From: Richelia sp. CSU_2_1 | Lineage (GTDB): Bacteria; Cyanobacteriota; Cyanobacteriia; Cyanobacteriales; Microcoleaceae | DNA: 64,000 nt | Direction of reading: 5' to 3' | Assembly: GCA_012034575.1 (NCBI GenBank) | Contig: JAAUPF010000013.1 | Span: forward strand, 1 to 64,000 | In this document: piece by piece, positions 1-12,520 of the stretch | Layout: the number at the start of each line of letters is the position of its first letter | Position numbering within the stretch: position 1 is the first letter of the stretch | The notes under the pieces: generated by a model | Database searches by the model: none | What the model saw: the letters and a program-made list of their open reading frames with translations, nothing else | What the model was told of the DNA's origin: nothing | Made by a program: the position numbers and the translations under genes

Positions 1-15
1 CACGGGGCACTACCC

Positions 16-1095
16 CTACAAAATTCTCCTTGGCCTGAGAGTGCCAATATTTTGATATAATCCTAATAATCTGCTGGCGCGATGCTGATTTCTGAGCAGG
101 CGATCGCGAATTGTTTTCAAATGCACTGGTTCATCAAAAGCTTCCCAATTCTCAACAATCTGAGTTCGCACAATCTCCCCAATAAAAAATTGGTTCGTAG
201 TAAGGACTTCAGTCCTTCTCTCATCCGTAGAATCTGGCAAAATAGAACCGGATTCTGGGAAATATTTTGCTCCTTCTTCCTTCTTCCCTCTTCCTTCTTC
301 CTTCTTCCTTCTTCCTTCTTCCTTCGATTGAATTACCAACTTACAAAGCTTTTGAGTCAAAAATGGTTGCCCGCCCGTCCACTCCAAAATTTCTTGTAAA
401 ACCTCTTGAGGATTGTAAAATTTCCCCTCAAAACCCTTGACTAAAGGCAAGCATTCATGTAATTGAAAACCCCTAAGTTCAATAGCCCGACCGATATTAA
501 ACGGAGTGCGAGTTGCATCGCTAATTAAATCCGACGGCGTAGCTACTCCCAGCAAAGCAAATGTCAACCGCTGGTATTCTGATTTATAAGCGCGCTTGTT
601 GTAGCACGATCGAATCAAGGCGAAAAAATCATCTAGCGGTTCTTTGAAACTGAGAACACTATCAATTTCATCGATAAAAATGACAATATTTTGCGAAATC
701 TTGACCAGCAATAATTCTTCAATTAACTCTCCTAAACGTTGGACTGGCGGCATCAATTCTCTCTCCCGCCACCAAGTCATAAATTCCACTGCATCAAACA
801 GATTGAAATTGCACAAAAGTTTGTAAGCGACGCCACCGTACCATTTATCGAGAGAAACTTGCTGATTGCCAATATCTGAAAGGTCGATCGTAGCACAGGC
901 AATGCGATCGATCGAAAGTTTTTGTACAGTTCGCACCAGCAAACTAGATTTGCCCATTTGTCGGGAATTGAGCACGTAACAAAACTCTCCAGCTTTGAGG
1001 GCACCATAAAGTTCCGAGTCAGCTTGTCGCACTACATAAGTGGGCGCATCTTGCGGGAGACTGCCGCCGATTTGATATTGATAATCGACTGTCAT
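16..1095 (-). CDS. AAA_35-like ATPase, repeat-invaded and 3'-truncated
   Basis: This is a 359-residue P-loop ATPase of the cyanobacterial AAA_35 (AAA-like) group. Walker A is SRQMGKSS at about residues 44-51 and Walker B is IVIFIDEID at about 137-145. The start is followed by the usual IGGSLPQDAPTYV entry motif. Between LCKLVIQS and FFIGEIVRTQ there is an in-frame insertion of about 45 residues. It is encoded by a TTCCTTC tandem repeat and a copy of the 'AAGGACTNNAGTCCTT' repeat. The C-terminus departs from the family after LLGLYQNI and stops inside a GTAGGGGTAGTGCCCC-type repeat, so the usual downstream segment is missing. The start lies 20 bp after the pilin-like gene on the same strand, so they are probably co-transcribed. 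Function is unknown; relatives are STAND-like signalling ATPases. It may be a decaying copy of the 5538 gene's ATPase domain. Confidence 0.7.
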   Translation of the reverse strand: MTVDYQYQIGGSLPQDAPTYVVRQADSELYGALKAGEFCYVLNSRQMGKSSLLVRTVQKLSIDRIACATIDLSDIGNQQVSLDKWYGGVAYKLLCNFNLFDAVEFMTWWRERELMPPVQRLGELIEELLLVKISQNIVIFIDEIDSVLSFKEPLDDFFALIRSCYNKRAYKSEYQRLTFALLGVATPSDLISDATRTPFNIGRAIELRGFQLHECLPLVKGFEGKFYNPQEVLQEILEWTGGQPFLTQKLCKLVIQSKEEGRRKKEEGRGKKEEGAKYFPESGSILPDSTDERRTEVLTTNQFFIGEIVRTQIVENWEAFDEPVHLKTIRDRLLRNQHRASRLLGLYQNIGTLRPRRIL

Positions 1096-1114
1096 AAGCT
1101 TGCTTTTAGTTAGA

Positions 1115-1630
1115 TTATTTTGTCAAATCTGTTGTACCTTTACCGCAAGTAACTTTGCCATTTTGATAAATTGGTTTCGCTGGTTCAATTGTAGCGGGAG
1201 AATCAGTTTCGCACAAGATGTAAGTTGTTGTTATTTCATCTTTGGCAGCATTGGGATCGACTTCTTTGGCAGGAACTACAAACACACCGCCGACATAACT
1301 TTTAAGTGTTTTTTGTTTGGAAATTCCGTAATGAAAGGCTGCTTTTTCAGTGGCATAAATTGAATATTTGTAGTTGGTTGTTTCTGGCTTTACGCTAATA
1401 CCCAGAGCGTCAATGGAATTAGTAAAAACACCTTTTTCTAAAAAGTGGGCTTGCTGGCCTTTGCTCATCGAACTAACATACTGTTTCGATTCTGATAGCG
1501 GGCTTCTATTGCCTCTATGCAGAAAACTTGGCAAAACCGCCGCGATAATTATCCCAATAAATATCAAAAGCGCTAAACATCCACAACCGTTATATGCAAT
1601 GCTATTTGACCGCGCATCTTTTGGGTTCAT
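1115..1630 (-). CDS. Type IV pilin-like G/H family protein
   Basis: This is a 171-residue protein of the cyanobacterial pilin-like G/H group. A short polar N-terminus ending in GCGC leads into a hydrophobic helix (about residues 18-34). This is followed by the conserved ESKQYVSSMSKGQQAHF stretch and a C-terminal two-Cys region (ILCETDS ... KVTCGKGTT). I chose the ATG at 1630 because GGAGAA lies 5 bases upstream; 19 more in-frame codons exist upstream but have no ribosome site. A classical prepilin cleavage motif with Glu at +5 is not visible, so it may be a minor pilin-like envelope protein rather than a pilus subunit. It is a close paralogue of the 4772-5353 gene and sits just upstream of the AAA ATPase. 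Confidence 0.8.
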   Translation of the reverse strand: MNPKDARSNSIAYNGCGCLALLIFIGIIIAAVLPSFLHRGNRSPLSESKQYVSSMSKGQQAHFLEKGVFTNSIDALGISVKPETTNYKYSIYATEKAAFHYGISKQKTLKSYVGGVFVVPAKEVDPNAAKDEITTTYILCETDSPATIEPAKPIYQNGKVTCGKGTTDLTK

Positions 1631-1689
1631 AGTATTTCTCCTGTTTATAGTAAGGACTTTAGTCCTTAAAAAGTCTGTTAAATTCACAT

Positions 1690-1745
1690 GAATTACGCAG
1701 GCAATCTATATGTAGGGTGCGCACTGCGCACCTTACGCCTCGCCC
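1690..1745. repeat. Palindromic GGTGCGC..GCGCACC repeat
   Basis: The segment holds a palindrome, GGTGCGCACTGCGCACC. The same unit recurs near 10487, 11020, 25240, 25340, 43432 and 43477, always between genes. It is one of the dispersed intergenic repeat families of this genome; no function can be read from it. Confidence 0.7.
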
Positions 1746-1768
1746 ATTTCACAAAGTATCGATCGATC

Positions 1769-2059
1769 CTATATTTCATCTCGATCGCCCTTTTGCCACA
1801 ATTCTTTTGCTGTCAGGACTATTAAAAACACCAAGCATCCAGAAACATTAATTGCATCTCGATCGCCCTCTGTATCGAATCCTCGATCGGGATTTATTGA
1901 ACCAACATATTGTATTGTTTCTGAGTGCTTAGGCTGAGATGCTTGATTAAGATAAGATGGCAGGGCGATCGCGCCAATTACTCCAACGAACATTAAAAAC
2001 AATAAACACCTGAAACCTTTAGCTAAAGTGTTATTTAGCTGATATTTTTGTTGGCGCAT
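1769..2059 (-). pseudogene. Short pilin-like remnant
   Basis: This 96-residue frame starts like the neighbouring pilin-like proteins: a polar N-terminus, then hydrophobic CLLFLMFVGVIGAIALPSYL, then ETIQYVGS. It loses the family sequence after about residue 55. The rest contains a second hydrophobic stretch (CLVFLIVLT), and the string ATCTCGATCGCCC occurs twice in the DNA (near 1778 and 1856), suggesting a small internal duplication or deletion. Relatives are about 170-190 residues and end in a Cys-containing domain that is absent here. A ribosome site (AAGGAAAC) precedes the ATG, so a short membrane peptide could still be made. Confidence 0.55.
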
Positions 2060-2192
2060 GGTATTGTTTCCTTTTTATTTGCAGTCAGAAGTTTCGTACT
2101 CAGAATGTTAATTTAATTCAGCGAGGCAGAGCCTCTGGATCTGCGTTACCAGGCTCTGCCTGGTAACGAGGAAAACAAGGGAATACTAATCT

Positions 2193-2753
2193 CTAAGCTC
2201 GCAATTTTTGTGCTTCTTTTCGATCGAGGGATGTCGGTTGAATCGCTTTAGTGCCGATCGCAAAATCGCGCAATTCAACTCTCGTAAACTTCACTCCCCA
2301 AGGATCGGTGGTTGTATCCAACTCCTCGACTAAAGCATTATTGAGTTGATTGCGAGCCGTATAAAGCTCCTCTAGGGTTAATTGAGCAATTTGAGTGCGA
2401 ATGGAAAGAATCAGCATATTGAACATGGCTTCTTTGAGATTCTGCACTTTGTAGCAAGCTTTTTCTAAGTCAATTACTCGCCAGTACACAATAAATTCAA
2501 GGGTGACAAAAACCCGATCGCGAGTTGCGCATTGTTGCGGTGGCAGTTTTAACATTTGCTCGCGCAGAGTTTGTTTATAAGCGACTGTTTCGACAAAGGG
2601 AATTAGAAATGTCAAACCAGGTTCGAGTTTTTTGCGATCGTAAATTCCGAAAACTTCTACTAAAGCCTCATCTCCTTGACGGACGACCTTGATACTGCTA
2701 CCTAAAGATACTCCGGCGATCGCAAACAACACCATCAAAAAATACTGATACAT
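2193..2753 (-). CDS. SPFH/band 7 membrane protein, short C-terminus
   Basis: This is a 186-residue member of the SPFH (stomatin/prohibitin/flotillin) family. An N-terminal membrane segment (about residues 3-17) is followed by the band 7 core: GDEALVEVFGIYDRKKLEPG, LIPFVETV and IRTQIAQLTLEEL, with VKFTRVELRDFAI near the end. The ATG at 2753 has TAGGAG upstream; the longer frame to 2879 runs through an ACAGTTG tandem repeat and is unlikely to be translated. Family members usually continue into a long coiled coil, but this one ends after the VELRDF motif (..DRKEAQKLRA), so it is probably truncated. It follows the NfeD-like gene on the same strand, the classical SPFH/NfeD pairing for membrane microdomains. 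Confidence 0.8.
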   Translation of the reverse strand: MYQYFLMVLFAIAGVSLGSSIKVVRQGDEALVEVFGIYDRKKLEPGLTFLIPFVETVAYKQTLREQMLKLPPQQCATRDRVFVTLEFIVYWRVIDLEKACYKVQNLKEAMFNMLILSIRTQIAQLTLEELYTARNQLNNALVEELDTTTDPWGVKFTRVELRDFAIGTKAIQPTSLDRKEAQKLRA

Positions 2754-2762
2754 AGTGAATCT

Positions 2763-2805
2763 CCTAAACAGTTGATAGTTGACAGTTGACAGTTGACAGT
2801 TAATA
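2763..2805. repeat. ACAGTTG tandem repeat
   Basis: Several copies of a 7-base unit (ACAGTTG, with variants) lie between the NfeD-like and SPFH genes. Similar tracts occur near 28680-28735, 45680-45725 and 54318-54357. Confidence 0.8.
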
Positions 2806-2884
2806 GTCGATCGTGATTTCTTAGTCCGCGAAGGCGGACTTTGTTCGACAAGAAGCGATTTCAATCGCCGAGTCATCAAAGAAG

Positions 2885-3427
2885 TTAACCGTTAATGTGA
2901 ATTAATCTGTCAGGTATCACAATCAACGTGTTTCCTTCCCGCTGCAAAACGTAAACTTTTTGTTTGGGTGCAATTCCTTGATAATCTTCATTTCGGGCTT
3001 TCCAAGGAGCACCTTCATACATCACCATTCCAGTTTCTCCAGGTAAAATTTCGGAAATAGTTGTGGCTGTGGTTGCCACGGGAATCACAAACTTTTTGCG
3101 CACGATTAAAAGCGGTCTAATCCAGGTGTTGAGGGCGAGAGAGATTACCATCCAGTAGGATATATGCCAGTCAAAAGCTGCATACATGACATATGCCCAA
3201 TTAAACTGAAATGCGATCGAGCCTATCCACAAAGCGGAAGAGCAAATTAAAGCAGCAACCCCCATCATCAGCAAGTAAAATCTGTATCTTCGCGGCAGAG
3301 TTTTGAGGATTAATAGATCGATCGCACTTAACACAATTCCGGCTGTCAACCAAAATAGCGGCGGTGTGAATGTAAAAAGCGTTCGATCGGTGGCTAATGC
3401 CAGCAGGAAAGTTAAAATAGAATCCAT
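2885..3427 (-). CDS. NfeD-like membrane protein
   Basis: This is a 180-residue protein with three likely membrane helices (about 22-42, 48-70 and 78-102). A C-terminal OB-fold-like part follows, with LPGETGMVMYEGAPWKARN and QKVYVLQREGNTLIVIP, the signature of NfeD partners of SPFH proteins. It starts with ATG at 3427 after AGGTAAAAAC and is the first gene of a minus-strand run: NfeD, SPFH, pilin-like, AAA ATPase. The upstream region (3431-3555) is nearly the same as that of the pilin-like gene at 5353, so both transcription units are probably controlled together. Confidence 0.82.
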   Translation of the reverse strand: MDSILTFLLALATDRTLFTFTPPLFWLTAGIVLSAIDLLILKTLPRRYRFYLLMMGVAALICSSALWIGSIAFQFNWAYVMYAAFDWHISYWMVISLALNTWIRPLLIVRKKFVIPVATTATTISEILPGETGMVMYEGAPWKARNEDYQGIAPKQKVYVLQREGNTLIVIPDRLIHING

Positions 3428-3430
3428 AAT

Positions 3431-3555
3431 GTTTTTACCTCGCTTTGATGCGATTCAACCTTGTTATCTCTTATCTAATCAGGCGGCTATTTGAGTTCGC
3501 GAGTGAGTTATTTGAGAATTCATCGACTTTTCATCGACTTTTTATCGACTTGGGA
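3431..3555 (-). promoter_or_regulatory. Promoter segment with 11-bp iterons (copy 1)
   Basis: ATCGACTT occurs at 3522-3529, 3533-3540 and 3544-3551, an exact 11-bp period. The segment from TTTGATGCGATTCAACC through the iterons is about 85-90% the same as 5364-5490. Direct repeats at one helical turn are typical of tandem binding by a dimeric regulator such as an OmpR/PhoB-type factor. The iterons lie about 95 bp upstream of the NfeD-like start. Confidence 0.6.
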
Positions 3556-3897
3556 CGGTTGGCAGTCAATTTAAGGTCAAATCCGCATTCCGACGGTTCG
3601 TCAGTCCAGCAGTCCGGCAGGGGTTTAAACCCCTGCCTCATAGCGAAAGTCGGTTGAAACCGACTATAGATTTAAGATTTAAGATTTTGGATTTTAGATT
3701 GGAATTATTAGTTTGAGATTGAATATCGGAGATTGAAAATTGAGGATTAAGAAGTTAATTTAATTGGCTCTTCAGTCGTCTTCAGACGACTTTCACTATG
3801 AGACAGGGAATTAATTCCCTGTCGGACGATCGGACTTACAAACAATATCGGTACAGCATTTGATGTTAAATTAATTTGGGATTGGAAACTAAGGCTG
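3556..3897. repeat. Intergenic repeats between gene units
   Basis: No gene is visible. The segment holds a hairpin around GGGTTTAAACCC (near 3620), AGTCGGTTGAAACCGACT (3649-3666) and GTCGTCTTCAGACGAC, plus A/T-rich GATTTAAGATTT tracts. These could act as processing or termination structures. Confidence 0.55.
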
Positions 3898-4721
3898 TTA
3901 TCTCGATCGCTTCCTATTTACTTTGGTTTTAGTTGAATTAATCAACAGCTCTCTTGATGCTAGGTTTGTTTTTCGGAAAAGTTTAATGTTCAGATATTTT
4001 GCCTGATAGAAACAAGTGTTTTCTAATAGAGAATACCTGAAATCTGTATTCCCCAAAGTTGCTTGAGAAAAATCTGCTTTTCGCAATGTAGCTCCTTTAA
4101 AAGTAGTAGCTCCCCAGAGCCATGTTCCTTGATATGGTAAACTTTCAACAATATAATGTACCGTGGTAGAAACCAAGATAATTAGTGGCCACAGCATCAT
4201 AAAATTAAAAACAAAGCCCCATATTAATGTCGTTTTTTTGGTAAAATAGTAGATAATTATATTTACCACAAAAATGCTAGTAAAGTAGCACCAAAAAATT
4301 GCAATCCAGTTTTCGTAGATCCATGTTGATGAAAAAAAAGAAATATTAATAACAGTATTCCATAAACAAAAAACTTAAGGAATAAAAGTCCAGTTCCCTG
4401 TTCAAATTCTGCGTTGAATAACTCAGCCAAAGTATTAGAATAATCAATGCAGTAATAAATAGATAGACCCATTGTTAAACAAGCAACGCTCAACTGATAA
4501 ATGGTTGTGACAAATGATTCTTCAAACCTTGCTCCAGATTTAGCATAAGTAAAATCCGCTCCTGTTAAATTAGTATTAACAAAGCTAGCACCTCGAATAT
4601 CAGCATGGCTCAAATTAATATCAGACAGTTCCTGACCATCGAAATTCTCACCTCTGAGGTTTTCTTTGCTAAAGTTTCTTCTACCTTGTTGATAGAGTTT
4701 AATTAATTCTGAGGCTTTCAT
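3898..4721 (-). pseudogene. Pentapeptide-repeat membrane protein, frameshifted
   Basis: Two overlapping frames together make one protein. The upstream part (4721 to 4263) starts MKASELIKLYQQGRRNFSKENLRG. It has pentapeptide repeats of the A(D/N)LXX type (LSHADIRGASFVNTNLTGADF) and then membrane helices. The downstream part (to 3898) begins with another membrane segment and has a second pentapeptide block (GATLRKADFSQATLGNTDF) ending YQAKYLN. This repeat-membrane-repeat layout matches a known cyanobacterial family. The frames join if one A is added to the A-run at 4270-4274, giving LLAFFVVNII. The C-terminus is also shorter than usual. It follows the pilin-like gene (4772-5353) by 50 bp, probably in one operon. 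Confidence 0.75.
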
Positions 4722-4771
4722 TTTGATTTTCTCCTATTTGTGCGAAATATTCTGGGATTTGTTTAGTTAGA

Positions 4772-5353
4772 TTATCTGGTCAATTCCGTTGTGCCTTTAC
4801 CGCAAATAACCTCACCATTTTGATAGATTGGTTCCGCTGGTTCATCTGTTGGTTTAAATCTAATTAAAGGGCGATCTTCATTGGTTTCGCAAAGTATAGA
4901 TACAGTCGTCATTGCATTTCGATCTAATTCTTGAGCAGGAACTAGAAAAACACCCCCAAAATAACTTTTAAGCGCCTGGTTTTTGTTAGGTAATGAATAA
5001 CTAAATGCTGCTCTTTGAGTAACGCGAATTGAATATTTGTAGTTATTTGTTTCTGTTTTTATTCCAAGTCCTAAATCAGAAATAGAATTGCCAAACGTAC
5101 TGTTTTCTGCAAAATAAGCTTGCTGACCTTTATTCATTGAAGCAACATACTGTTTCGCTTCCGACTGCCTAGCCTTATTTGCCATACTCAAAAATGATGG
5201 CACAAATATCTCAACTTGCTTATCCTTAATTCCAAAGGTCAAAAATAATCCTGGGAATAGCATAATTGCGCCAATTACTCCAATGAATATCAGCAATGAG
5301 CATCCGCAACCTTTAGGTAAAATGCTATTTGACTTAGACTTTTGTTGACTCAT
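4772..5353 (-). CDS. Type IV pilin-like G/H family protein
   Basis: This 193-residue paralogue of the 1115-1630 protein shares the GCGC-hydrophobic N-terminus, the ARQSEAKQYVASMNKGQQAYF stretch, GGVFLVPAQE and the C-terminal VICGKGTTELTR. A segment of about 20 residues (MLFPGLFLTFGIKDKQVEIF) is inserted between the first half of the hydrophobic helix and the usual VPSFL motif, lengthening or breaking the helix. The ATG at 5353 follows GAGGAAAAA. The upstream region carries the 11-bp iterons shared with the NfeD-like gene, and the HTH/AAA gene is divergent. Confidence 0.82.
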   Translation of the reverse strand: MSQQKSKSNSILPKGCGCSLLIFIGVIGAIMLFPGLFLTFGIKDKQVEIFVPSFLSMANKARQSEAKQYVASMNKGQQAYFAENSTFGNSISDLGLGIKTETNNYKYSIRVTQRAAFSYSLPNKNQALKSYFGGVFLVPAQELDRNAMTTVSILCETNEDRPLIRFKPTDEPAEPIYQNGEVICGKGTTELTR

Positions 5354-5363
5354 GGTATTTTTT

Positions 5364-5490
5364 CCTCGCTTTTACCTTGTTTTGATGCGATTCAACCTTG
5401 TTATTCCCATCTAATCAGGTGGCTGTTCGAGTTGGCGACTGACTTATTTGAGAATTCATCGACTTTTCATCGACTTGCCATCGACTTGAG
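5364..5490 (-). promoter_or_regulatory. Promoter segment with 11-bp iterons (copy 2)
   Basis: ATCGACTT at 5458-5465, 5469-5476 and 5480-5487 repeats the exact 11-bp period seen at 3522-3551, within a longer near-identical block. The nearest iteron is about 105 bp upstream of the pilin-like start at 5353. On the other side it lies about 50 bp upstream of the divergent gene at 5538, which encodes a DNA-binding-like domain. Confidence 0.6.
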
Positions 5491-5537
5491 GGACACTTGC
5501 ATTTATTATGGTTTTAGTGTCTCAATTGCGATAAACA

Positions 5538-7298
5538 ATGCCTCGATCGCTCAGGCTGCGTCTCCAGTACATTCCCGCAGTTAAATCCTCTCTCCTCCGC
5601 AACGGCTTTCCCAGTCAGAAAATCCTGGCTGAGGATTTAGGAATCGCCCAATCTACAGTCAGTCATTTCCTGAATGGCAAACCTGTGGATTATGCCAATT
5701 TCATCGAAATTTGTCGCGGATTGAATCAAGAATGGCGCGATATAGCCGATTTTGAATCCCAATCCCCGCCCGATGAGGTATTGCCAAAATCTGTAAAAAT
5801 TGCGATCGCCCAATCCACTCAACACAACACTCTGGTTCAACAATTTCACCAAGCTTTTACTGCCGCCAGTCACGAAGTTTTTTTAGTTAACAAAAATAGC
5901 AAAGATTACTCGTATTTAAAAAATTGCGATTATTTACTGCTGCCGATCGACTCAGAATCTGCTGCTAGCGAAATGATAGTAGAACAAGTGCAGCTAGCCA
6001 AAGAATTGCACTCTTTAAATTATCATAAACCAGCTATTTTACCAATTTGTATTGAATTAAATACACCAATTTCTTTCGATTTATTACACTATTTAGCAGA
6101 AATCCCGATTTGGCATTGGCGAGGTACGGGCGATCCATCAAATTTAATTTCCGAAGTTTTCACTGTAATTCAAGAAGGTCGCACATCCTTAAATCCCGAC
6201 TGTGAATTAGCAGTCAATTTAACGAATATTACTAACACAAAACAGTCAATAATTCAACCCCTACCAGCAGCAGCACCAGAAGTGCCGGGAGGACAAGTAG
6301 ATTTAGCTTCTGCTTTGTATATCGATCGCCCTCCGATCGAATCCCGCTGTTACGAAACCATCGGTCAACCTGGGGCCCTGATTCGGATTAAAGCCCCCAG
6401 ACAAATGGGTAAAACATCTTTAATGGCGAGGATTTTGCACCATGCAGAACAGCAAGGTTCCCGCACGGTCGCACTAAGTTTTCAGCTCGCAAATAAGAGA
6501 GTTTTCGCTAATTCCGATACATTTTTGCAGTGGTTTTGTGCTAGCATAGGTCAAGAATTGGGAATGCTAGAACAGTTGCCGAAGTGTTGGGAATTAGCAG
6601 ATTTAATTGGCAGCAATCAGTGCTGCAAGGCTTACATCGAACAGTATTTGCTGTCGGAATCTTCACCGCCTTTAACTTTGGGTTTGGATGAGTGCGATCG
6701 CCTGTTTGAATCGCCGGAAATTGCCGATGATTTTTTTGGATTGTTGCGGGCTTTGCATGAAGAAGCCAAGCGGCGAGATATCTGGAAAAAGTTTCACTTG
6801 ATTGTAGTGCATTCGACAGAAGTTTATATCCCGCTCGATGTAAATAAATCGCCATTTAATGTAGGATTGCCGATCGAACTACCGGAGTTTAATTTGCAGC
6901 AAGTACAAGATTTAGCAAAACGCCACGGATTGAATTGGAACTCGCGGGAAGTTGCAGAATTGATGGGTTTAGTGGGTGGAAATCCTTATTTAGTGCGGCT
7001 GGGAATGTATCATATTTGCCGTCAAGATTTGACTTTAGATCGGTTAGTGCAAGAATCGGCAACTGAAGCGGGAATTTATAGCGATCATTTGCGGCGGCAT
7101 TTGTGGAATTTAGAGAAATATGCGGAATTAATGGAGGCGATGGGAGAGGTAGCAAACGCATCCCAACCAGTACGATTGAAGTCTGAATTAGGATTTAAAT
7201 TAAATAGTATGGGGTTGGTGAAACTTCAAGGAAATAGTTGCAGTCCGCGATGTAAATTGTATGCAGAATATTTTCGCGATCGACTCTCGCAGCCTTAA
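5538..7298 (+). CDS. HTH / TIR-like / AAA_35 ATPase fusion
   Basis: This 586-residue protein has three parts. Residues 1-75 are a Cro/XRE-like HTH of the type that opens many cyanobacterial STAND proteins (LAEDLGIAQSTVSHFLNGKP). Residues 85-215 resemble a TIR-like fold (KIAIAQSTQHNTLVQQFHQAF, DYLLLPID, AILPICIEL, WRGTGDP). Residues 240-580 are an AAA_35 P-loop ATPase with Walker A APRQMGKTS at 286-294 and Walker B LTLGLDECD at about 379-387. The fold names are my reading of patterns, and the TIR-like call is the weakest. It is divergent from the pilin-like operon across the iteron region, so it could regulate that operon. It could also be a conflict-type signalling ATPase whose effector is the TIR-like domain. 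Confidence 0.75.
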   Translation: MPRSLRLRLQYIPAVKSSLLRNGFPSQKILAEDLGIAQSTVSHFLNGKPVDYANFIEICRGLNQEWRDIADFESQSPPDEVLPKSVKIAIAQSTQHNTLVQQFHQAFTAASHEVFLVNKNSKDYSYLKNCDYLLLPIDSESAASEMIVEQVQLAKELHSLNYHKPAILPICIELNTPISFDLLHYLAEIPIWHWRGTGDPSNLISEVFTVIQEGRTSLNPDCELAVNLTNITNTKQSIIQPLPAAAPEVPGGQVDLASALYIDRPPIESRCYETIGQPGALIRIKAPRQMGKTSLMARILHHAEQQGSRTVALSFQLANKRVFANSDTFLQWFCASIGQELGMLEQLPKCWELADLIGSNQCCKAYIEQYLLSESSPPLTLGLDECDRLFESPEIADDFFGLLRALHEEAKRRDIWKKFHLIVVHSTEVYIPLDVNKSPFNVGLPIELPEFNLQQVQDLAKRHGLNWNSREVAELMGLVGGNPYLVRLGMYHICRQDLTLDRLVQESATEAGIYSDHLRRHLWNLEKYAELMEAMGEVANASQPVRLKSELGFKLNSMGLVKLQGNSCSPRCKLYAEYFRDRLSQP

Positions 7299-7408
7299 TT
7301 TGATTTTTTTGATAAATTTTATGAATTTTAACCGAAAAATTGTTGTGGTAATCGATCGGACATGATATAAGTTGTAAACCACTTTTTGACAAGATTAAGG
7401 AGAAATAT

Positions 7409-8836
7409 ATGCACCGCACTACTTGGCAGAACATTAACGCGATCGGCGCAACTTTAATTATCTCTATAATGCCGTCTCTGATGCCTTTTACCTCTGGCAT
7501 AGAAGTTCTGGCCGTGCAGGCAAAAAGTCCTCAAAAATTAGCGATAGAGGCGGAAAGATGGCAGCAATTCGCTTCCGATCGGGGTGGATTTAGTGTTTTA
7601 ATGCCGGGAAAACCCACGGAAACAATAGAACCTCCAAAACCTCAGAGTAGAGCAGGGGAAACTAGGTATTTTTTTGTGGAAACTGAAGGTGGAAAAGTTT
7701 CCTACTATGTTAGCTATATAGAATTTCCCGGCCTGCCCAGTCAGTTAAGTGTTAGTGAAGTTAATACTCTGTTGAATGCCGCACGAGATGGTGCAGTTAA
7801 TAATAGTACACTCCTCAAAGAAAGTAGTATCATACTCAATGACAACCTCGGTCGAGAAATCGAGATAAAAACTGCTGATGGTTTTCGCACTAAAGCCAGA
7901 ATATACTGGGTGCATCCGCGCTTGTATGTACTAATGACGCGGACAAGCGGACAAACGTTTCCGCCAGCAAGCGACAGGTTTTTAACTTCTTTCAAATTGC
8001 TCAAAACTCAAGCTCAAAAAAGCAATATAAATTCCCCACAGGCACCAAGAAACATCGCCCAAAAAGATGAGGCAACCGAGCTTTACAAAGAGGGTTCAGA
8101 GTTGTACGATCGAGGTCGATTTCAAGAAGCGCTAGTCAAATTGCAAAAAGCTTTAGAAATAGTCAGAAAAAACGGAGATCGTGAGGGCGAAATGGTCGTG
8201 CTTTCGCGGTTGGGAAGAACTCTCGATAATTTGAAACAGTACGACAGAGCCCTGGAAGTTTATCAGCAAGCTTTAGCGATTGCCCGACAAACAAGCAACC
8301 GCCAAGGTGAAGGAATAATTCTCGATTACACCGGCAGACTTTATCAGAATACGGGAGATTTGGCAAAAGCGCTGAATTTTCAACAGCAAGCATTGGAGAT
8401 TTTTCGACAAATTAACAACAGCGAGAGCAGTGCAATAGTGCTGGGCAATATCGGGAAAATTTATCACTATCAGAAACAGTACGATCGAGCCCTGGAAGCT
8501 TACCAGCAAACTTTAGTTATTTTTCGCCAACTAAACAATCGCCAGGGAGAAGGCGTAATGCTTGACTACATTGGCACTATTTATAACTCTCAGGGGCAGT
8601 ATCAAAAAGCGATGGATTTTCACGAGCAAGCATTGACTATTTTCAAACAAATTGGCAACCGGCGCAGTCAAGCAATAGTGATGTCAAATATAGGGGAAGT
8701 TTTTGCCAACCTCGATCGGAGAGAAAAAGCGGTGGAATCCCTAGAACAAGCTTTAGCGCTATTTCAAGAAGTCGGCGATCGAGAAAACGCCAGCATTACC
8801 ATTAATATAATTCAGAGGGTGCGACAAAAGCGGTAA
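7409..8836 (+). CDS. Secreted TPR-repeat protein
   Basis: This is a 475-residue protein with an N-terminal signal-like hydrophobic segment (about 12-32). A globular domain at about 45-200 begins WQQFASDRGGFSVLMPGKP. From about 225 to 470 there are at least six tetratricopeptide units of the YDRALEVYQQALAIARQ type. TPR arrays mediate protein-protein contacts; the GFSVLMPGKP domain is common in cyanobacterial secreted proteins of unknown role. The ATG follows TAAGGAGAAATAT, a strong ribosome site. No operon partner is visible. Confidence 0.85.
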   Translation: MHRTTWQNINAIGATLIISIMPSLMPFTSGIEVLAVQAKSPQKLAIEAERWQQFASDRGGFSVLMPGKPTETIEPPKPQSRAGETRYFFVETEGGKVSYYVSYIEFPGLPSQLSVSEVNTLLNAARDGAVNNSTLLKESSIILNDNLGREIEIKTADGFRTKARIYWVHPRLYVLMTRTSGQTFPPASDRFLTSFKLLKTQAQKSNINSPQAPRNIAQKDEATELYKEGSELYDRGRFQEALVKLQKALEIVRKNGDREGEMVVLSRLGRTLDNLKQYDRALEVYQQALAIARQTSNRQGEGIILDYTGRLYQNTGDLAKALNFQQQALEIFRQINNSESSAIVLGNIGKIYHYQKQYDRALEAYQQTLVIFRQLNNRQGEGVMLDYIGTIYNSQGQYQKAMDFHEQALTIFKQIGNRRSQAIVMSNIGEVFANLDRREKAVESLEQALALFQEVGDRENASITINIIQRVRQKR

Positions 8837-8861
8837 AGCGAGAAAAGGACGAGAGGAAATT

Positions 8862-8995
<134 letters not shown>

Positions 8996-9047
8996 TGTAG
9001 TAGATTTTAAGTTGGGTTTCGTGCCCCAACCCAACTCAGAAGCTTAA

Positions 9048-9179
9048 TTTATTTGGGTTGAGCATAACGATTTGCGCAACTACAATAACGAGCGATCGCA
9101 GCAATTGCTCGAATTTTCCGATCGCATCGACTGGGCAGAGTCAAAGATCTATCAAGAGAAAGGTGCAAACTGGAAATAG
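9048..9179 (+). pseudogene. Possible gene remnant (C-terminal fragment)
   Basis: The frame reads WVEHNDLRNYNNERSQQLLE... and ends GANWK-stop at 9179, with no start codon. The DNA around 9066-9100 resembles that at 9585-9620 inside the next gene (NDLRNYNNERS against DDLQRYNNERS). It could be a leftover of a related gene or a chance match. Confidence 0.3.
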
Positions 9180-9180
9180 A

Positions 9181-9285
9181 TTAGCTACCTTCAAGATCGG
9201 CAGCCAAAAAATCACTAGCAATCTGCCAAGATTGGCTGTTTTGGTGAAGAGCAAACTCATCTAAATCGGCATAATTAGATTTCAT
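9181..9285 (-). CDS. Possible 34-residue small protein
   Basis: A short minus-strand frame reads MKSNYADLDEFALHQ ... SWQIASDFLAADLEGS. Its composition looks protein-like (acidic, aromatic), but there is no clear ribosome site. Its ATG overlaps the start of the divergent 9284 gene. Recorded only as a possibility. Confidence 0.2.
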   Translation of the reverse strand: MKSNYADLDEFALHQNSQSWQIASDFLAADLEGS

Positions 9286-10384
9286 GCACAGCACTATAGA
9301 TATATCCTCAAAAACTGCCTCGCCGAGCCGGCAAAAGCCACAATTAACAACTACAAACTACGAAGCAGCAGAACAGCAATTTGTCAACTTGCTAGCTGCA
9401 GACGATCTAGACAAAACCGTAGCGGCAACACCGTTACTTGTCAGCGACTTGGAAAGCGCGATCGCAGTGGCCCTTCGATCGGCCTATCAAGAATCCTCAA
9501 ACGATGATGCCGCGCACCGCTTTTTGCAGCGCGTGCTGTACCGCATCAACCGCCTCAACTTGTTTTGGTACGATGATTTGCAGCGCTACAACAACGAGCG
9601 ATCGCACTATTTGCGTTCCGTGCGCGATCGCATCGAAGAACCCTGGCAGCAATGGGAACTCTCGCAAATCGACGTTGCAGCCCTGCAAAACCTCCCAGAT
9701 GTCAAGCAAGCCCTGCGCGATCGTGCTGCCGCCGATGTCGATCCGCCGTTGAACGAGGGCGATCGCTATTTGCGGGAACAGATGACAGCAGGCGGATACA
9801 AGCATTTGCTGGCGATCGCATCTTTTGACGGTTTGATCGAAGCCAGTCGCCTGTCGCGCATCCTCGGCGGTGCCGGCAACGAAATTCAATGCACTCTGAC
9901 GCGCGTATTGATTGAGGAATACGGCGGCGGCCGCCTTCCCCGCAAGCATTCCACCTATTTTGCTCAAATGCTGGCAGAGTTCGGGATGAGTACGGAACCG
10001 GAAGCCTACTTCGATTTAGTGCCCTGGCAAGTTCTCGCAGGAATCAACCAAAACTTCCTGCTGACGGAACGCAAGCGCTATTTTCTGCAATACAACGGCG
10101 GACTGACTTATTTTGAAGTAGCTGGACCCGTTGCTTACCGCAATTATTTAGCTGCAGCGCAGCGCCTGGGCCTGTCGCAAGCTGCTATGGGTTATTGGGA
10201 ACTTCACATCCGAGAAGACGAACGTCACGGGCGCTGGATGCTGGATGAGGTGGCGCTGCCGCTAGCTGAAAGATACCTGCAGGATGCGTGGGAATTGGTG
10301 TTAGGGTACGATCGAGAAAAATCGATCGGCGATCGGGCTGCGGCTGCGGTAGCGCGATCGATCGAAACCGCCGAACAAAATTAA
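9284..10384 (+). CDS. Iron-containing redox enzyme, haem-oxygenase-like fold
   Basis: This 366-residue protein matches the haem-oxygenase-like/iron-containing redox enzyme family (HDO superfamily). Likely metal ligands are VLIEEYGGG, RKHSTYF and the late WELHIREDERHGRWM motif, which carries Glu and His residues in a helix as in di-iron relatives. The N-terminal 40 residues are variable and probably flexible. Family members oxidise small substrates, but the substrate here cannot be inferred. The start at 9284 has no strong ribosome site. A CCCCG/CGGGG hairpin follows the stop. Confidence 0.75.
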   Translation: MHSTIDISSKTASPSRQKPQLTTTNYEAAEQQFVNLLAADDLDKTVAATPLLVSDLESAIAVALRSAYQESSNDDAAHRFLQRVLYRINRLNLFWYDDLQRYNNERSHYLRSVRDRIEEPWQQWELSQIDVAALQNLPDVKQALRDRAAADVDPPLNEGDRYLREQMTAGGYKHLLAIASFDGLIEASRLSRILGGAGNEIQCTLTRVLIEEYGGGRLPRKHSTYFAQMLAEFGMSTEPEAYFDLVPWQVLAGINQNFLLTERKRYFLQYNGGLTYFEVAGPVAYRNYLAAAQRLGLSQAAMGYWELHIREDERHGRWMLDEVALPLAERYLQDAWELVLGYDREKSIGDRAAAAVARSIETAEQN

Positions 10385-10397
10385 CGGTTGGCATACT

Positions 10398-10418
10398 CCC
10401 CGCTCTGAAAAGACGGGG
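10398..10418. terminator. Small CCCCG/CGGGG hairpin
   Basis: CCCCG (10398-10402) and CGGGG (10414-10418) flank an 11-base loop just after the redox enzyme gene. There is no run of T, so it may be a processing stem or a leftover palindrome of an IS200/IS605-type end rather than a true terminator. Confidence 0.4.
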
Positions 10419-10561
10419 ATTCTCAGCTTAAAATATCTATAGGATTTACGACGCAAAAAGAGATTTAAAACATTATTTATAGTGGTAAGGTGCGCACTGC
10501 GCACCCCACAAATAGATTCGGTGCGTCAGTCCAGAGCTTGACCGATCGTGAATAATCAGTG

Positions 10562-10993
10562 ATGAACATAGAGCTGCGTCTTGTTAAAAACCAGCAAGAA
10601 TTAGAAGATATGTTTTACCAGCGGTGGCTGGTATTGCGATCGACCTTAGGAATGGAGCTCGGCAGCGAAAGAGACACTCACGAAGATAGTGCTATTCATG
10701 TCATAGCAACGCTCGATCGAAAAATTATTGGTTCCGGCCGGCTTCGAGAACTATCTCCTGAATTGGGCAGCATCGCTTATCTTGCCGTGCTTCCTGAATT
10801 TCAAAATCGAGGAGTCGGTACTAAACTAATTGAAAAATTAATCTATCAAGCTCGGGAAAAAAATCTCAAAACTGTGAGAGTTATGTCTCGAACTAATGCC
10901 GTTAAATTTTACCAGAATTTGGGATTTTCACCCGAAGATAAATCATCTGAATACCTGGGGATTTCGCACCTATTCATGCAGTTAAAAATTTGA
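10562..10993 (+). CDS. GNAT family N-acetyltransferase
   Basis: This 143-residue protein has the GNAT core. IHVIATLDRKIIGSGRL is beta strands 2-3 and IAYLAVLPEFQNRGVGTKLI is the acetyl-CoA-binding motif A (R/Q-X-X-G-X-G/A in the form QNRGVG). ARTNAVKFYQNLGF-type motif B follows (here SRTNAVKFYQNLGF). The substrate is unknown. I prefer ATG 10562 over GTG 10559. It stands alone between repeats. Confidence 0.85.
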   Translation: MNIELRLVKNQQELEDMFYQRWLVLRSTLGMELGSERDTHEDSAIHVIATLDRKIIGSGRLRELSPELGSIAYLAVLPEFQNRGVGTKLIEKLIYQAREKNLKTVRVMSRTNAVKFYQNLGFSPEDKSSEYLGISHLFMQLKI

Positions 10994-11016
10994 TTTATTT
11001 GCATTCAAATACTATA

Positions 11017-11295
11017 AGGTGCGCAGTGCGCACCCTACATTATTAGTCCTAAATTTCTGCTCCTTTATCTCTTAGTCCGCGGAGGCGGACTTTATGTGTA
11101 TAGACGCGGTTTCAACCGCCGAGTCTTAAATTTCTGCTCCTTTATCTCTTAGTCCGCGGAGGCGGACTTTGTGTGTATAGACGCGGTTTCAACCGCCGAG
11201 TCCTAAATTTATGCGACGAATTAAACGCGGTTTTCAACCGCCGAGTCCTAAATTTTTACGACAAATGAAACGCAGCGGTTTCAACCGCCGCGTAA
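11017..11295. repeat. Tandem 'GTCCGCGGAGGCGGAC' repeat cluster
   Basis: A GCGCAGTGCGC palindrome is followed by two near-perfect copies (about 76 bp each) of a unit with GTCCGCGGAGGCGGAC and GCGGTTTCAACCGCCG, then two shorter degenerate copies. Each unit can form two stems. Related single copies lie near 42890-42970. No gene is visible here. Confidence 0.8.
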
Positions 11296-11302
11296 GGGAT
11301 AT

Positions 11303-11668
11303 CTAACTACCAGGAGTACCCATTTCAATTGCTTTTTGTACCAAATCGTCGGTAACTTCACCCGGTACAGATTCCGACTTAATTTCCTTAGCCATCGACA
11401 GAAAATCATCGGGATTTCCTGTAGACTGTGCGGGCAAATTTGTCTCTTGAGGAGTCGGCATCTCAAATTTAGGTGCTGTTGCAGCCGCAGCAGCTTCGGC
11501 CCCGGCTTCAGTGCGATCGATTTCGCTAACGCTGAATTCTTTTGAAGCTTCGTAATCAGCCGATACGTCAACCTGAGGCAATTTTTGTTCTCCTGCTTCC
11601 ACGTTTTCAGCTATCTGTTGCGCGTCAAATGTTTGAGAGTTAGGTAATTGGGAACTTACTTCAGACAT
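11303..11668 (-). CDS. Conserved hypothetical acidic protein
   Basis: This is a 121-residue acidic, Ala/Glu/Pro-rich protein with no membrane segment and little predicted order. It has a C-terminal helix-like stretch (DDFLSMAKEIKSES ... DDLVQKAIEMGTPGS). An ATG at 11668 is preceded by AAGGAG. I do not recognise a family. It is divergent from the helical carotenoid protein gene across 324 bp, so the two may share regulation. Confidence 0.55.
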   Translation of the reverse strand: MSEVSSQLPNSQTFDAQQIAENVEAGEQKLPQVDVSADYEASKEFSVSEIDRTEAGAEAAAAATAPKFEMPTPQETNLPAQSTGNPDDFLSMAKEIKSESVPGEVTDDLVQKAIEMGTPGS

Positions 11669-11992
11669 CTCGTACTCCTTGCTATTTATACTGTTCTTTT
11701 CTTTGTATCGATCGTGACGGAAATTTCTTGAATTTTCATCTACCGGCAGATGTATCGATCGCTTCTATCTGAAGGATGATTTATTTGGGAATATTTGCAG
11801 GCGATCGCAATAATTCCCAAACATACTCCAACGGCGATCGAACTCCCAACTCAACTCTGGCAAGCCATTCCCCATCTCAAATCTTCAATCTAAAATCTCA
11901 AATCGCATTACCTCTTGGGGATGGTGACTGATACCTAAAAATCTTGCTATTCATAGGCTAGAAACATTTGTCATGAAATTAGGAAATTATTT
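11669..11992. promoter_or_regulatory. Divergent intergenic region
   Basis: This is the space between the minus-strand acidic protein and the plus-strand carotenoid protein. It contains a HIP1 site (GCGATCGC) and several CGATCG words. I could not assign a promoter with confidence. Confidence 0.35.
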
Positions 11993-12520
11993 ATGAACGC
12001 CAGCACTGTTCCCAACTCACACTCTCTTTCTAACGACACTCAAAATGCAGTTCAAGCAATAGATAAATTGAGTACGGATGAAAAATTGGCGCTGCTTTAC
12101 TTTATTTATGAAAAAATGGGAGATTCAGTTACTCCCGCTGCTCCCACAGCCGCCGAACCCGAACTCGCTCCTTTGCTGTTAGGTGATTTTTACCAGTTGT
12201 CGCCTGACCAACAATTGAATGTAATGCGAGCTATTGTTAACGGAGACGATACCGATTATTCTCGCGCTTACGGAGCTTTAACTGCTAACAATCAGTTGGT
12301 AGTTTGGTATGCTTGGGCTGTCGGTATGGGCGATACAATAGTAGATATCCCGGAAGGATATCAAGTAACTGAGGCTACTAATAACGTGCTGGGTCAAATT
12401 GAAAATCTAGATTTTGAACAGCAAATTTCAGTGCTGCGCGATGTAGCGAATAAGATGGGATATTCTGATGTGAAGCCAATTCAAACTCAGGCTGAAGTTG
12501 GCAAAACTTCAAGTTTTTGA
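11993..12520 (+). CDS. Helical carotenoid protein (OCP N-domain homologue)
   Basis: This 175-residue protein matches the all-helical N-terminal domain of the orange carotenoid protein without the NTF2-like C-domain. Visible signatures are DKLSTDEKLALLYFIYEKMG and QLVVWYAWAVGMGDT, then the QQISVLRDVANKMGY end. Tyr39 and Trp105 fall at the positions of OCP Tyr44 and Trp110, which hold the carotenoid. Such proteins quench singlet oxygen or, in some clades, phycobilisome excitation. I cannot place the clade (HCP1-9). A Pro/Ala-rich linker (about 46-62) is in the usual loop position. No CTD homologue or carotenoid gene is in the window. Confidence 0.85.
   Translation: MNASTVPNSHSLSNDTQNAVQAIDKLSTDEKLALLYFIYEKMGDSVTPAAPTAAEPELAPLLLGDFYQLSPDQQLNVMRAIVNGDDTDYSRAYGALTANNQLVVWYAWAVGMGDTIVDIPEGYQVTEATNNVLGQIENLDFEQQISVLRDVANKMGYSDVKPIQTQAEVGKTSSF

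What the first reader, a model, noticed from the sequence alone, without database searches (positions are those of the whole stretch)
3431..5490. Two promoters share about 120 bp with 11-bp-spaced ATCGACTT iterons
The regions before the NfeD-like operon (3522, 3533, 3544) and the pilin-like operon (5458, 5469, 5480) each carry three ATCGACTT units at exactly 11 bp, inside a longer near-identical block. The block sits about 100 bp from each start. This looks like a dedicated regulator site tying membrane-microdomain and pilin-like genes into one regulon. The divergent HTH protein at 5538 is an obvious candidate.
Basis: partly seen in the sequence, partly recalled or inferred. Interest (0 to 1): 0.72.

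Follow-up and report, generated by a model that had tools for sequence, protein, structure and literature searches.

The report
NLR-like regulator's operator arrays, cyanobacteria
Two near-identical stretches of repeated DNA words in a filamentous cyanobacterium are most likely landing strips for the neighbouring DNA-binding protein, an immune-receptor-like switch that appears to control pilus-like and cell-surface genes, and related switches in other cyanobacteria often carry their own versions of such strips.

Summary
ATCGACTT stands three times at 11-bp spacing at 3522 and at 5458, in blocks identical at 113 of 128 columns; the exact triple occurs nowhere else in the assembly. The 5538 protein is HTH + TIR fold + STAND NTPase. 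In 61 family genomes the exact pair is in 20 of 21 with its orthologue and 2 of 40 without. Homologues lacking the HTH have none (0 of 8). Paralogous HTH-STAND genes often carry their own 11-bp arrays: in a test fixed beforehand 22 of 49 sense, 0 of 49 antisense. Helix residue 42 covaries with one site base (no phylogenetic power). The promoter module also precedes unlinked surface-protein genes. The two blocks look like a local duplication. The closest characterised relative found, XssQ of Synechocystis, is an HTH-STAND activator with published binding to AAGTTNNAC: hence a new variant of a known kind. Binding and regulation here are inferred.

The parts
3433..3561 (-). Block 1: array-bearing promoter of the NfeD-SPFH-pilin operon (target reads on -)
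   Evidence: 88% identical to 5370-5499; promoter model R1 matches it (R1 was trained on it too)
3490..3518 (+). Block 1 degenerate units TTTGAGTT (3490-3497), AGTGAGTT (3502-3509), TTTGAGAA (3511-3518)
   Evidence: read; same 12-9-11 phase as block 2; similar composite arrays at some other HTH genes
3522..3551 (+). Block 1 perfect iterons ATCGACTT x3 at 11 bp
5370..5499 (.). Block 2: divergent promoter region between the pilin-like operon (-) and the HTH gene (+)
5426..5454 (+). Block 2 degenerate units TTCGAGTT (5426-5433), ACTGACTT (5438-5445), TTTGAGAA (5447-5454)
5458..5487 (+). Block 2 perfect iterons ATCGACTT x3 at 11 bp
5481..5509 (+). Candidate promoter of the HTH gene, TCGACT-17-TATTAT; its -35 lies inside the last iteron
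   Evidence: consensus match; 0.5 expected by shuffling; 20 of 46 family members have a -10-like hexamer 20-24 bp after the last unit, 5.0 expected
5538..7298 (+). Proposed regulator: XRE-type HTH (1-75), TIR-fold domain (about 84-216), STAND NTPase AAA_35 (250-580)
   Evidence: Pfam; AlphaFold model; Foldseek/VIA
4772..5353 (-). Pilin_GH-like protein, proposed target of block 2
   Evidence: Pfam PF16734
4263..4721 (-). Pentapeptide-repeat protein, next gene in the same direction
2885..3427 (-). NfeD-like protein, first proposed target of block 1
   Evidence: Pfam PF01957
2193..2753 (-). SPFH/Band_7 protein, same direction
   Evidence: Pfam PF01145
1769..2059 (-). Small pilin-like protein, no Pfam hit
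   Evidence: 83% identical relative in L066
1115..1630 (-). Second Pilin_GH-like protein
16..1095 (-). Second AAA_35 protein without HTH, last gene in the same direction; frequent neighbour of the regulator
   Evidence: synteny in relatives, and in L084 and L085 the nearest divergent hit to the HTH gene

Best explanation
The iterons are the operator array of the divergent 5538 protein, a one-component regulator built from an XRE-type HTH, a TIR-fold domain and a STAND (NLR-like) NTPase. Each 11-bp unit (8 read bases plus 3 free bases) would take one HTH in one major groove. Five or six in-phase units would place several subunits of a head-to-tail STAND oligomer on one face of the DNA. Bound beside the -35 of its own promoter and of the divergent operon, it would autoregulate its gene and, by analogy with XssQ, activate the pilin_GH, NfeD-SPFH and unlinked surface-protein genes that carry the module. 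Supported here by computation: array, phase, conservation, co-occurrence, cognate arrays at many paralogues, HTH-base covariation, the promoter module at unlinked genes, domain folds. Inferred: actual binding, oligomerisation, the direction of regulation, and the signal, which is unknown. The two window blocks arose by local duplication of the HTH/operon promoter.
For: 1) Array near the HTH gene: in 24 of 28 HTH-bearing loci within 400 bp of the start, against 0 of 8 homologues with AAA_35 but no such HTH; orthologues in other families of the order 12 of 15 and 7 of 9. 2) 61 family genomes: exact pair in 20 of 21 with the orthologue and 2 of 40 without, Fisher 7e-13; promoter model R1 in 21 of 21 and 3 of 40, 2e-13. 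3) Paralogues: sense GA[CG]TT pair at 10-12 bp upstream in 21 of 58, against 0 of 138 other ORFs (this set shaped the motif); test fixed beforehand on genomes not used before: 22 of 49, antisense 0 of 49, 19 genes at exactly 11 bp, 0 at 6-9 bp and 1 at 13-20 bp. 4) K/R at helix residue 42 goes with G at site position -3 in 7 of 8 HTH clusters against 0 of 26 (p 1.5e-6); residue 42 is the strongest of 56 columns scanned, z 10.2, next 3.8. 5) Last unit at the -35 position: -10-like hexamer 20-24 bp after it in 20 of 46, 5.0 expected. 6) XssQ of Synechocystis: HTH-STAND activator with gel-shift binding to single or tandem AAGTTNNAC (passages of PMC8205485); its HTH is 38% identical to 5538's, E 1e-13, and two such sites lie 12 bp apart before a sulfotransferase gene that I take for xssE, in the same orientation as here.
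Against: No binding or expression data exist for this protein. Presence/absence follows phylogeny, so the Fisher values overstate independence. On a poorly resolved HTH tree the covarying traits have only 5 (K/R) and 4 (G) changes, and the independent-pairs test had 1 supported pair and no power. L331 has Leu at residue 38 but keeps one ATCGACTT, against a Q38-AT code. 27 of 49 held-out and 37 of 58 first-set paralogues have no exact pair. L077, L086 and L087 have the HTH but no array within 400 bp; L320, L331 and L253 likewise. G028 has a promoter copy and no HTH hit at E 1e-6, and G019, 84% complete, a copy without orthologue. The held-out control ORFs were few (0 of 14, p 0.001). The 5481-5509 promoter match alone is not beyond chance. 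The full-length model has low overall confidence (pTM 0.34).
Confidence: 0.82

Rival explanations
1. The array is the site of another regulator, for example an OmpR/PhoB-type response regulator (Pho-box-like 11-bp direct repeats); the HTH gene is only another target.
For: OmpR-type regulators also read direct repeats near 11 bp (general knowledge), and a PBP_like_2 (PstS-like) gene carries the module in C98. In the Xss system a response regulator acts upstream of the HTH-STAND protein.
Against: The array follows the HTH and not the ATPase. Many paralogous HTH genes have variant arrays, whose base -3 covaries with HTH residue 42. The purified homologue XssQ itself binds such sites. No response regulator was tested directly.
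Confidence: 0.1
2. The two blocks are only a recent duplication (or a spreading promoter cassette) without regulatory meaning.
For: 88% identity over 128 columns including non-array bases. Relatives show duplicated NfeD-array units and NfeD start fragments (L066, L067, L068, L079). Module copies before different genes share about 90 bp and then diverge abruptly.
Against: Duplication is likely true for the origin, but the array persists about 50-70 bp from the HTH start at 64-71% protein identity (L073, L076, L078, L083) and 96-230 bp away at 56-58% (L084, L085), and in other families. The copies examined face gene starts.
Confidence: 0.06
3. The regulator is mainly a repressor: it occludes the -35 at both divergent promoters and is released by the signal.
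For: The last iteron overlaps the candidate -35 of the 5538 promoter; XRE-type HTHs are often repressors (general knowledge).
Against: XssQ is an activator, and no consensus promoter was found on the target side of either block, as expected if targets need activation.
Confidence: 0.25

Closest known systems
XssQ of Synechocystis sp. PCC 6803 (HTH-STAND activator of synechan genes; PMC8205485, passages read)
   Same: N-terminal HTH of the same family (38% identity, E 1e-13), STAND-type NTPase, direct-repeat sites near gene starts, a site in the divergent region beside its own gene, surface-related targets, AAGT[T/C] orientation towards targets
   Different: NACHT-type NTPase instead of AAA_35, no TIR match in Pfam, core AAGTT instead of AAGTC/AACTC, 1-2 sites (12 or 23 bp apart where two) instead of 5-6 in phase, linked to the two-component pair XssR/XssS
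AfsR of Streptomyces (SARP-NOD-TPR; PMC10936776, passages read)
   Same: STAND-type regulator whose DNA-binding domain reads two 11-bp direct repeats, 8 bases contacted and 3 free, overlapping the -35
   Different: SARP DNA-binding domain, two repeats, phosphorylated, actinobacterial; homology not tested here
MalT (recalled, not looked up)
   Same: STAND activator with several sites per promoter
   Different: C-terminal LuxR-type HTH, maltose regulon
Plant TIR-NLRs such as RPP1, and TIR-APAZ of SPARTA
   Same: TIR fold next to a STAND NTPase in one chain (RPP1 is the best Foldseek hit; TIR Z 13.9 to SPARTA)
   Different: HTH in front, no LRR part in 586 residues; NAD cleavage untested; a shared fold shows no function

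Membership tests
HTH-STAND regulators (XssQ type) | N-terminal HTH homologous to XssQ's | tested here: met
   BLASTP 27/71 identical, E 1e-13 for a single comparison; a consensus of the family finds the pSYSM gene at E 1e-6
HTH-STAND regulators (XssQ type) | STAND-type NTPase after the HTH | tested here: met
   AAA_35, E 1.3e-141; NLR/Orc-like fold by Foldseek at low model confidence
HTH-STAND regulators (XssQ type) | Direct-repeat sites with an AAGT[T/C]-like core upstream of targets | tested here: met
   for this system; for xss genes
HTH-STAND regulators (XssQ type) | Binding to the sites and activation of targets | not testable with these tools
   shown for XssQ only (PMC8205485)
TIR domain proteins | TIR fold | tested here: met
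   residues 86-216 of the model, Z 13.9, rmsd 2.8 over 126 to SPARTA TIR; Pfam TIR_2 only E 0.046, below cut-off
TIR domain proteins | NADase activity | not tested
   catalytic Glu not settled; residues about 100-218 are absent from orthologues L080-L082
Response-regulator (Pho-box) sites | Bound by an OmpR/PhoB winged helix | not tested
   correlations point to the XRE-type HTH instead
Known anti-phage defence proteins (PADLOC) | match to a PADLOC model | tested here: not met
   0 families at E 0.01 for 5538 and for the 16-1095 protein

The most novel reading that the evidence does not exclude
Cyanobacteria carry a phylum-wide family of NLR-like, signal-gated transcription factors (HTH in front of AAA_35, NB-ARC or NACHT STAND modules, here with a TIR-fold domain). 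Each paralogue marks its own promoter and regulon with a private 11-bp iteron array, read by a simple residue-to-base code, and assembles head-to-tail along the helix. NLR-type sensing is thereby wired directly to transcription of pili, adhesin-like and other surface proteins in multicellular filaments.
Probability: 0.45. Interest if true: 0.78.

Novelty: new variant of a known kind. Interest (0 to 1): 0.62.

Why it matters
It turns an anonymous repeat into a testable regulator-operator pair and shows that the pairing recurs in a large, little studied family of cyanobacterial STAND proteins. It gives those proteins a likely job (transcription control) and gives experimenters ready binding sites, target genes and a predicted recognition position (helix residue 42 to base -3) for many paralogues. 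The contrast between immune-receptor-like domain make-up and surface-gene targets is a direct question for filament biology.

Tried and rejected
Rfam on 1-12000: no match at gathering scores. The first control set was faulty, because its HTH filter read only 20 residues and left HTH genes in; it was replaced. PADLOC: no match for the two window proteins; NCBIfam: no name for 5538. PDB sequence search with the full profile found nothing below E 0.34; the HTH profile found a designed protein at E 0.015 and HipB-type XRE proteins at E 0.08 to 0.14. The tree-based independent-pairs test had no power. The Q38-AT code (5 of 5 against 1 of 29 clusters) is confounded with the orthologue clade, column 38 is not the top column, and L331 is a counterexample, so it is not used as evidence. 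Literature: ten searches of the PMC library. The XssQ paper came up in the last; in these listings I saw no paper on this array, this gene or a family-wide array. Only listings were seen, except for passages of PMC7159879 (nothing on such arrays in those passages), PMC10936776 and PMC8205485.

Choices that bear on counts. Redundant upstreams were dropped (77 to 58; 60 to 49). L129 and L155 were re-oriented in the script. The held-out set was 60 of 64 new paralogues listed down to E 6e-30; I left out four by oversight (two of G450, one each of G469 and G510), fetched none listed below that, and the list itself was capped. R1 was trained on loci of the genomes it was then run on. The covariation used all 65 members with arrays, first and held-out sets and orthologues together. 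Pfam was run on 2 of the 10 DUF4347-type targets.

Full report
What was checked. ATCGACTT stands at 3522, 3533, 3544 and at 5458, 5469, 5480 on the + strand. The exact triple at 11 bp occurs only at these two places in the assembly of 7,272,175 bases, with none in the control pattern. The blocks around them match at 113 of 128 aligned columns, 3433-3561 and 5370-5499. Reading the sequence, each block also holds three weaker units upstream, so that GA cores lie 12, 9, 11, 11 and 11 bp apart in both. Similar composite arrays precede some other HTH genes. Two more exact pairs lie on other contigs, C98 and C283.

The neighbours. The minus-strand genes are an NfeD-like protein, an SPFH protein, a small pilin-like protein, a Pilin_GH protein and an AAA_35 protein behind block 1, and a Pilin_GH protein and a pentapeptide protein behind block 2. 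The plus-strand gene at 5538 starts 51 bp after the last base of the last iteron of block 2 and encodes HTH (1-75), a middle domain and AAA_35. AlphaFold gave mean pLDDT 70.5 and pTM 0.34, with the HTH and middle domain better than much of the NTPase. The middle domain is a TIR fold (Z 13.9 over 126 residues to SPARTA TIR); Foldseek's best whole-chain hit is the plant TIR-NLR RPP1 (E 1e-7). Sequence alone reaches TIR_2 only at E 0.046.

Conservation at the locus. A scan of named genomes gave 38 loci, all from cyanobacteria, many of them Microcoleus and relatives. Of 28 loci with the HTH part and its start, 24 have a tandem pair (at most one mismatch per unit) within 400 bp of the start; the misses are L074 (108 bp of upstream sequence only), L077, L086 and L087. 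Of 8 homologues with AAA_35 but without this HTH, none has it. By my reading, the nearest divergent hit across the array is NfeD in 16 of the 28 and a Pilin_GH gene with a NfeD start fragment in 3 more (L067, L068, L079). In 9 of the 28 a further array lies behind the HTH gene, facing a Pilin_GH hit in 8 of these. In L084 and L085 the nearest divergent hit is the second AAA_35 gene. L066 has two NfeD-SPFH units, each with an array. I read block 1 and block 2 of the window as a local duplication of this kind.

Co-occurrence. Of 61 genomes of the family, 21 have the orthologue (profile A2, E below 1e-44) and 22 have an exact tandem pair; 20 have both (Fisher 7e-13). The orthologue without an exact pair is G006, whose array has one changed base. 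The pairs without orthologue are G019 (84% complete) and G035, whose contig L053 begins inside the orthologue. A sequence model of the promoter module (R1) finds it in 24 of 61 genomes: all 21 plus G019, G035 and G028. The G028 copy has a changed first unit. R1 was trained on such loci, so the exact-pattern count is the cleaner test. Orthologues in other families of the order have the pair in 12 of 15 and 7 of 9; L328 and L250 among the misses have only about 100 bp of upstream sequence, and some of these genomes seem to be the same organisms as.

The wider family. The HTH profile finds relatives in 65 of 292 phylum genomes at E 1e-6 and in 169 of 388 order genomes at E 1e-18. Ten members run against Pfam have AAA_35 (5), NB-ARC (3) or AAA_16 and AAA_22 matches below the curated cut-off (2). 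In a first set of 77 genes, 58 non-redundant, sense GA[CG]TT pairs peak at 11 bp (13 genes), 12 bp (7), 22 bp (10), 33 bp (6) and 32 bp (5), with 4 at 10 bp and 0 to 3 at the other distances from 6 to 40, and at most 1 on the other strand. At 10-12 bp: 21 of 58, against 0 of 138 other ORFs on the sense strand; 7 of the 138 have an antisense pair, mostly genes divergent from an array. The motif had been shaped on this set, so a test was fixed in the notebook before fetching and run on genomes not used before: 22 of 49 sense, 0 of 49 antisense, 19 genes at 11 bp, 0 at 6-9, 1 at 13-20 and 3 at 24-31 bp; control ORFs 0 of 14. So about four in ten members show an exact pair. The others may have weaker units or none.

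Who reads the site. The three bases before GA[CG]TT differ among paralogues. Grouped into 34 HTH clusters, K or R at helix residue 42 goes with G at -3 in 7 of 8, against 0 of 26 for other residues, and residue 42 is the top column of 56 scanned (z 10.2 against 3.8 for the next). This is what contact between that residue and that base would give. The tree of this short domain is too weak for a phylogenetic test (5 and 4 changes, 1 supported independent pair), so I treat it as strong but not conclusive.

Promoter geometry. In 46 family members with a suitably placed array, the best -10-like hexamer starts 20-24 bp after the G of the last unit in 20 (5.0 expected from shuffles), and at 22 bp in 9 (1.0 expected). 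In the window this is TCGACT-17-TATTAT, a match that alone is not beyond chance. Towards the targets no consensus promoter was found in either block, though a stretch related to CTCAAATAGCCACCTGATTTAATA follows the array in the 26 modules aligned, with the largest differences in a few such as L078, L083 and L090. That fits an activator-dependent promoter; this step is inference.

Targets away from the locus. The module precedes DUF4347-type large proteins in ten copies in nine genomes (eight of the ten judged by their similar N-termini). Pfam on two of the ten gives DUF4347 with FG-GAP and Calx-beta repeats, one also RTX repeats. It also precedes a PBP_like_2 protein in G000 and G031 and a serpin in G031. 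The copy on C283 lies beside a C-terminal remnant of an HTH-AAA_35 gene and a Pilin_GH operon.

Closest knowledge. XssQ of Synechocystis is described as a STAND protein with an N-terminal HTH, a transcriptional activator, with gel-shift evidence for single or tandem AAGTTXXAC sites (PMC8205485, passages). On plasmid pSYSM the gene beside the two response-regulator genes (NACHT type) has an HTH 38% identical to that of 5538. Two sites lie 12 bp apart before the gene I take for xssE, two lie 23 bp apart before the one I take for xssL, and the region between xssQ and its divergent neighbour has one site 48 bp from xssQ (I assigned gene letters from the annotation). AfsR, a STAND regulator with another DNA-binding domain, reads two 11-bp direct repeats with 8 contacted and 3 free bases over the -35 (PMC10936776, passages). 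Both make the proposed mechanism plausible and limit its novelty.

Verdict. The best account is an HTH-TIR-STAND regulator with a self-marked regulon of surface-related genes, a new variant of the XssQ kind. Binding, direction of regulation, oligomer and signal remain to be shown.

Noticed in passing
window 16-1095 (-): A second AAA_35 protein without HTH ends the run of genes behind block 1; in L084 and L085 it is the nearest divergent hit to the HTH gene, so the two AAA_35 proteins may be partners.
   Followed up: partly
L033:4311-4565 (contig C283): C-terminal remnant of an HTH-AAA_35 gene (78% identical to 5538's end) next to a module copy and a Pilin_GH operon: the window genome seems to have split an ancestral locus.
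   Followed up: partly
L080, L081, L082 (Oscillatoriales PH2015_01U, Microcoleus LEGE 07076, Tychonema): Orthologues lack residues about 100-218, the TIR-fold domain, while keeping HTH, AAA_35 and array.
   Followed up: no
L032, L203, L204 array regions: About 90 bp of promoter module are shared between unrelated target genes and then end abruptly, as if the promoter moved as a cassette.
   Followed up: partly
L241:2424-2491 (G028): Module copy before a DUF4347 gene in a genome without an HTH hit, its first unit changed; possibly a decaying orphan target.
   Followed up: no
L161, L162, L139, L145, L175: Short open frames (about 85-106 aa) that hold little more than this HTH, with their own arrays; they could be separate regulators or broken STAND genes.
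   Followed up: no
window about 271-326: CTTCCTT-type repeats inside the reading frame of the AAA_35 protein 16-1095.
   Followed up: no
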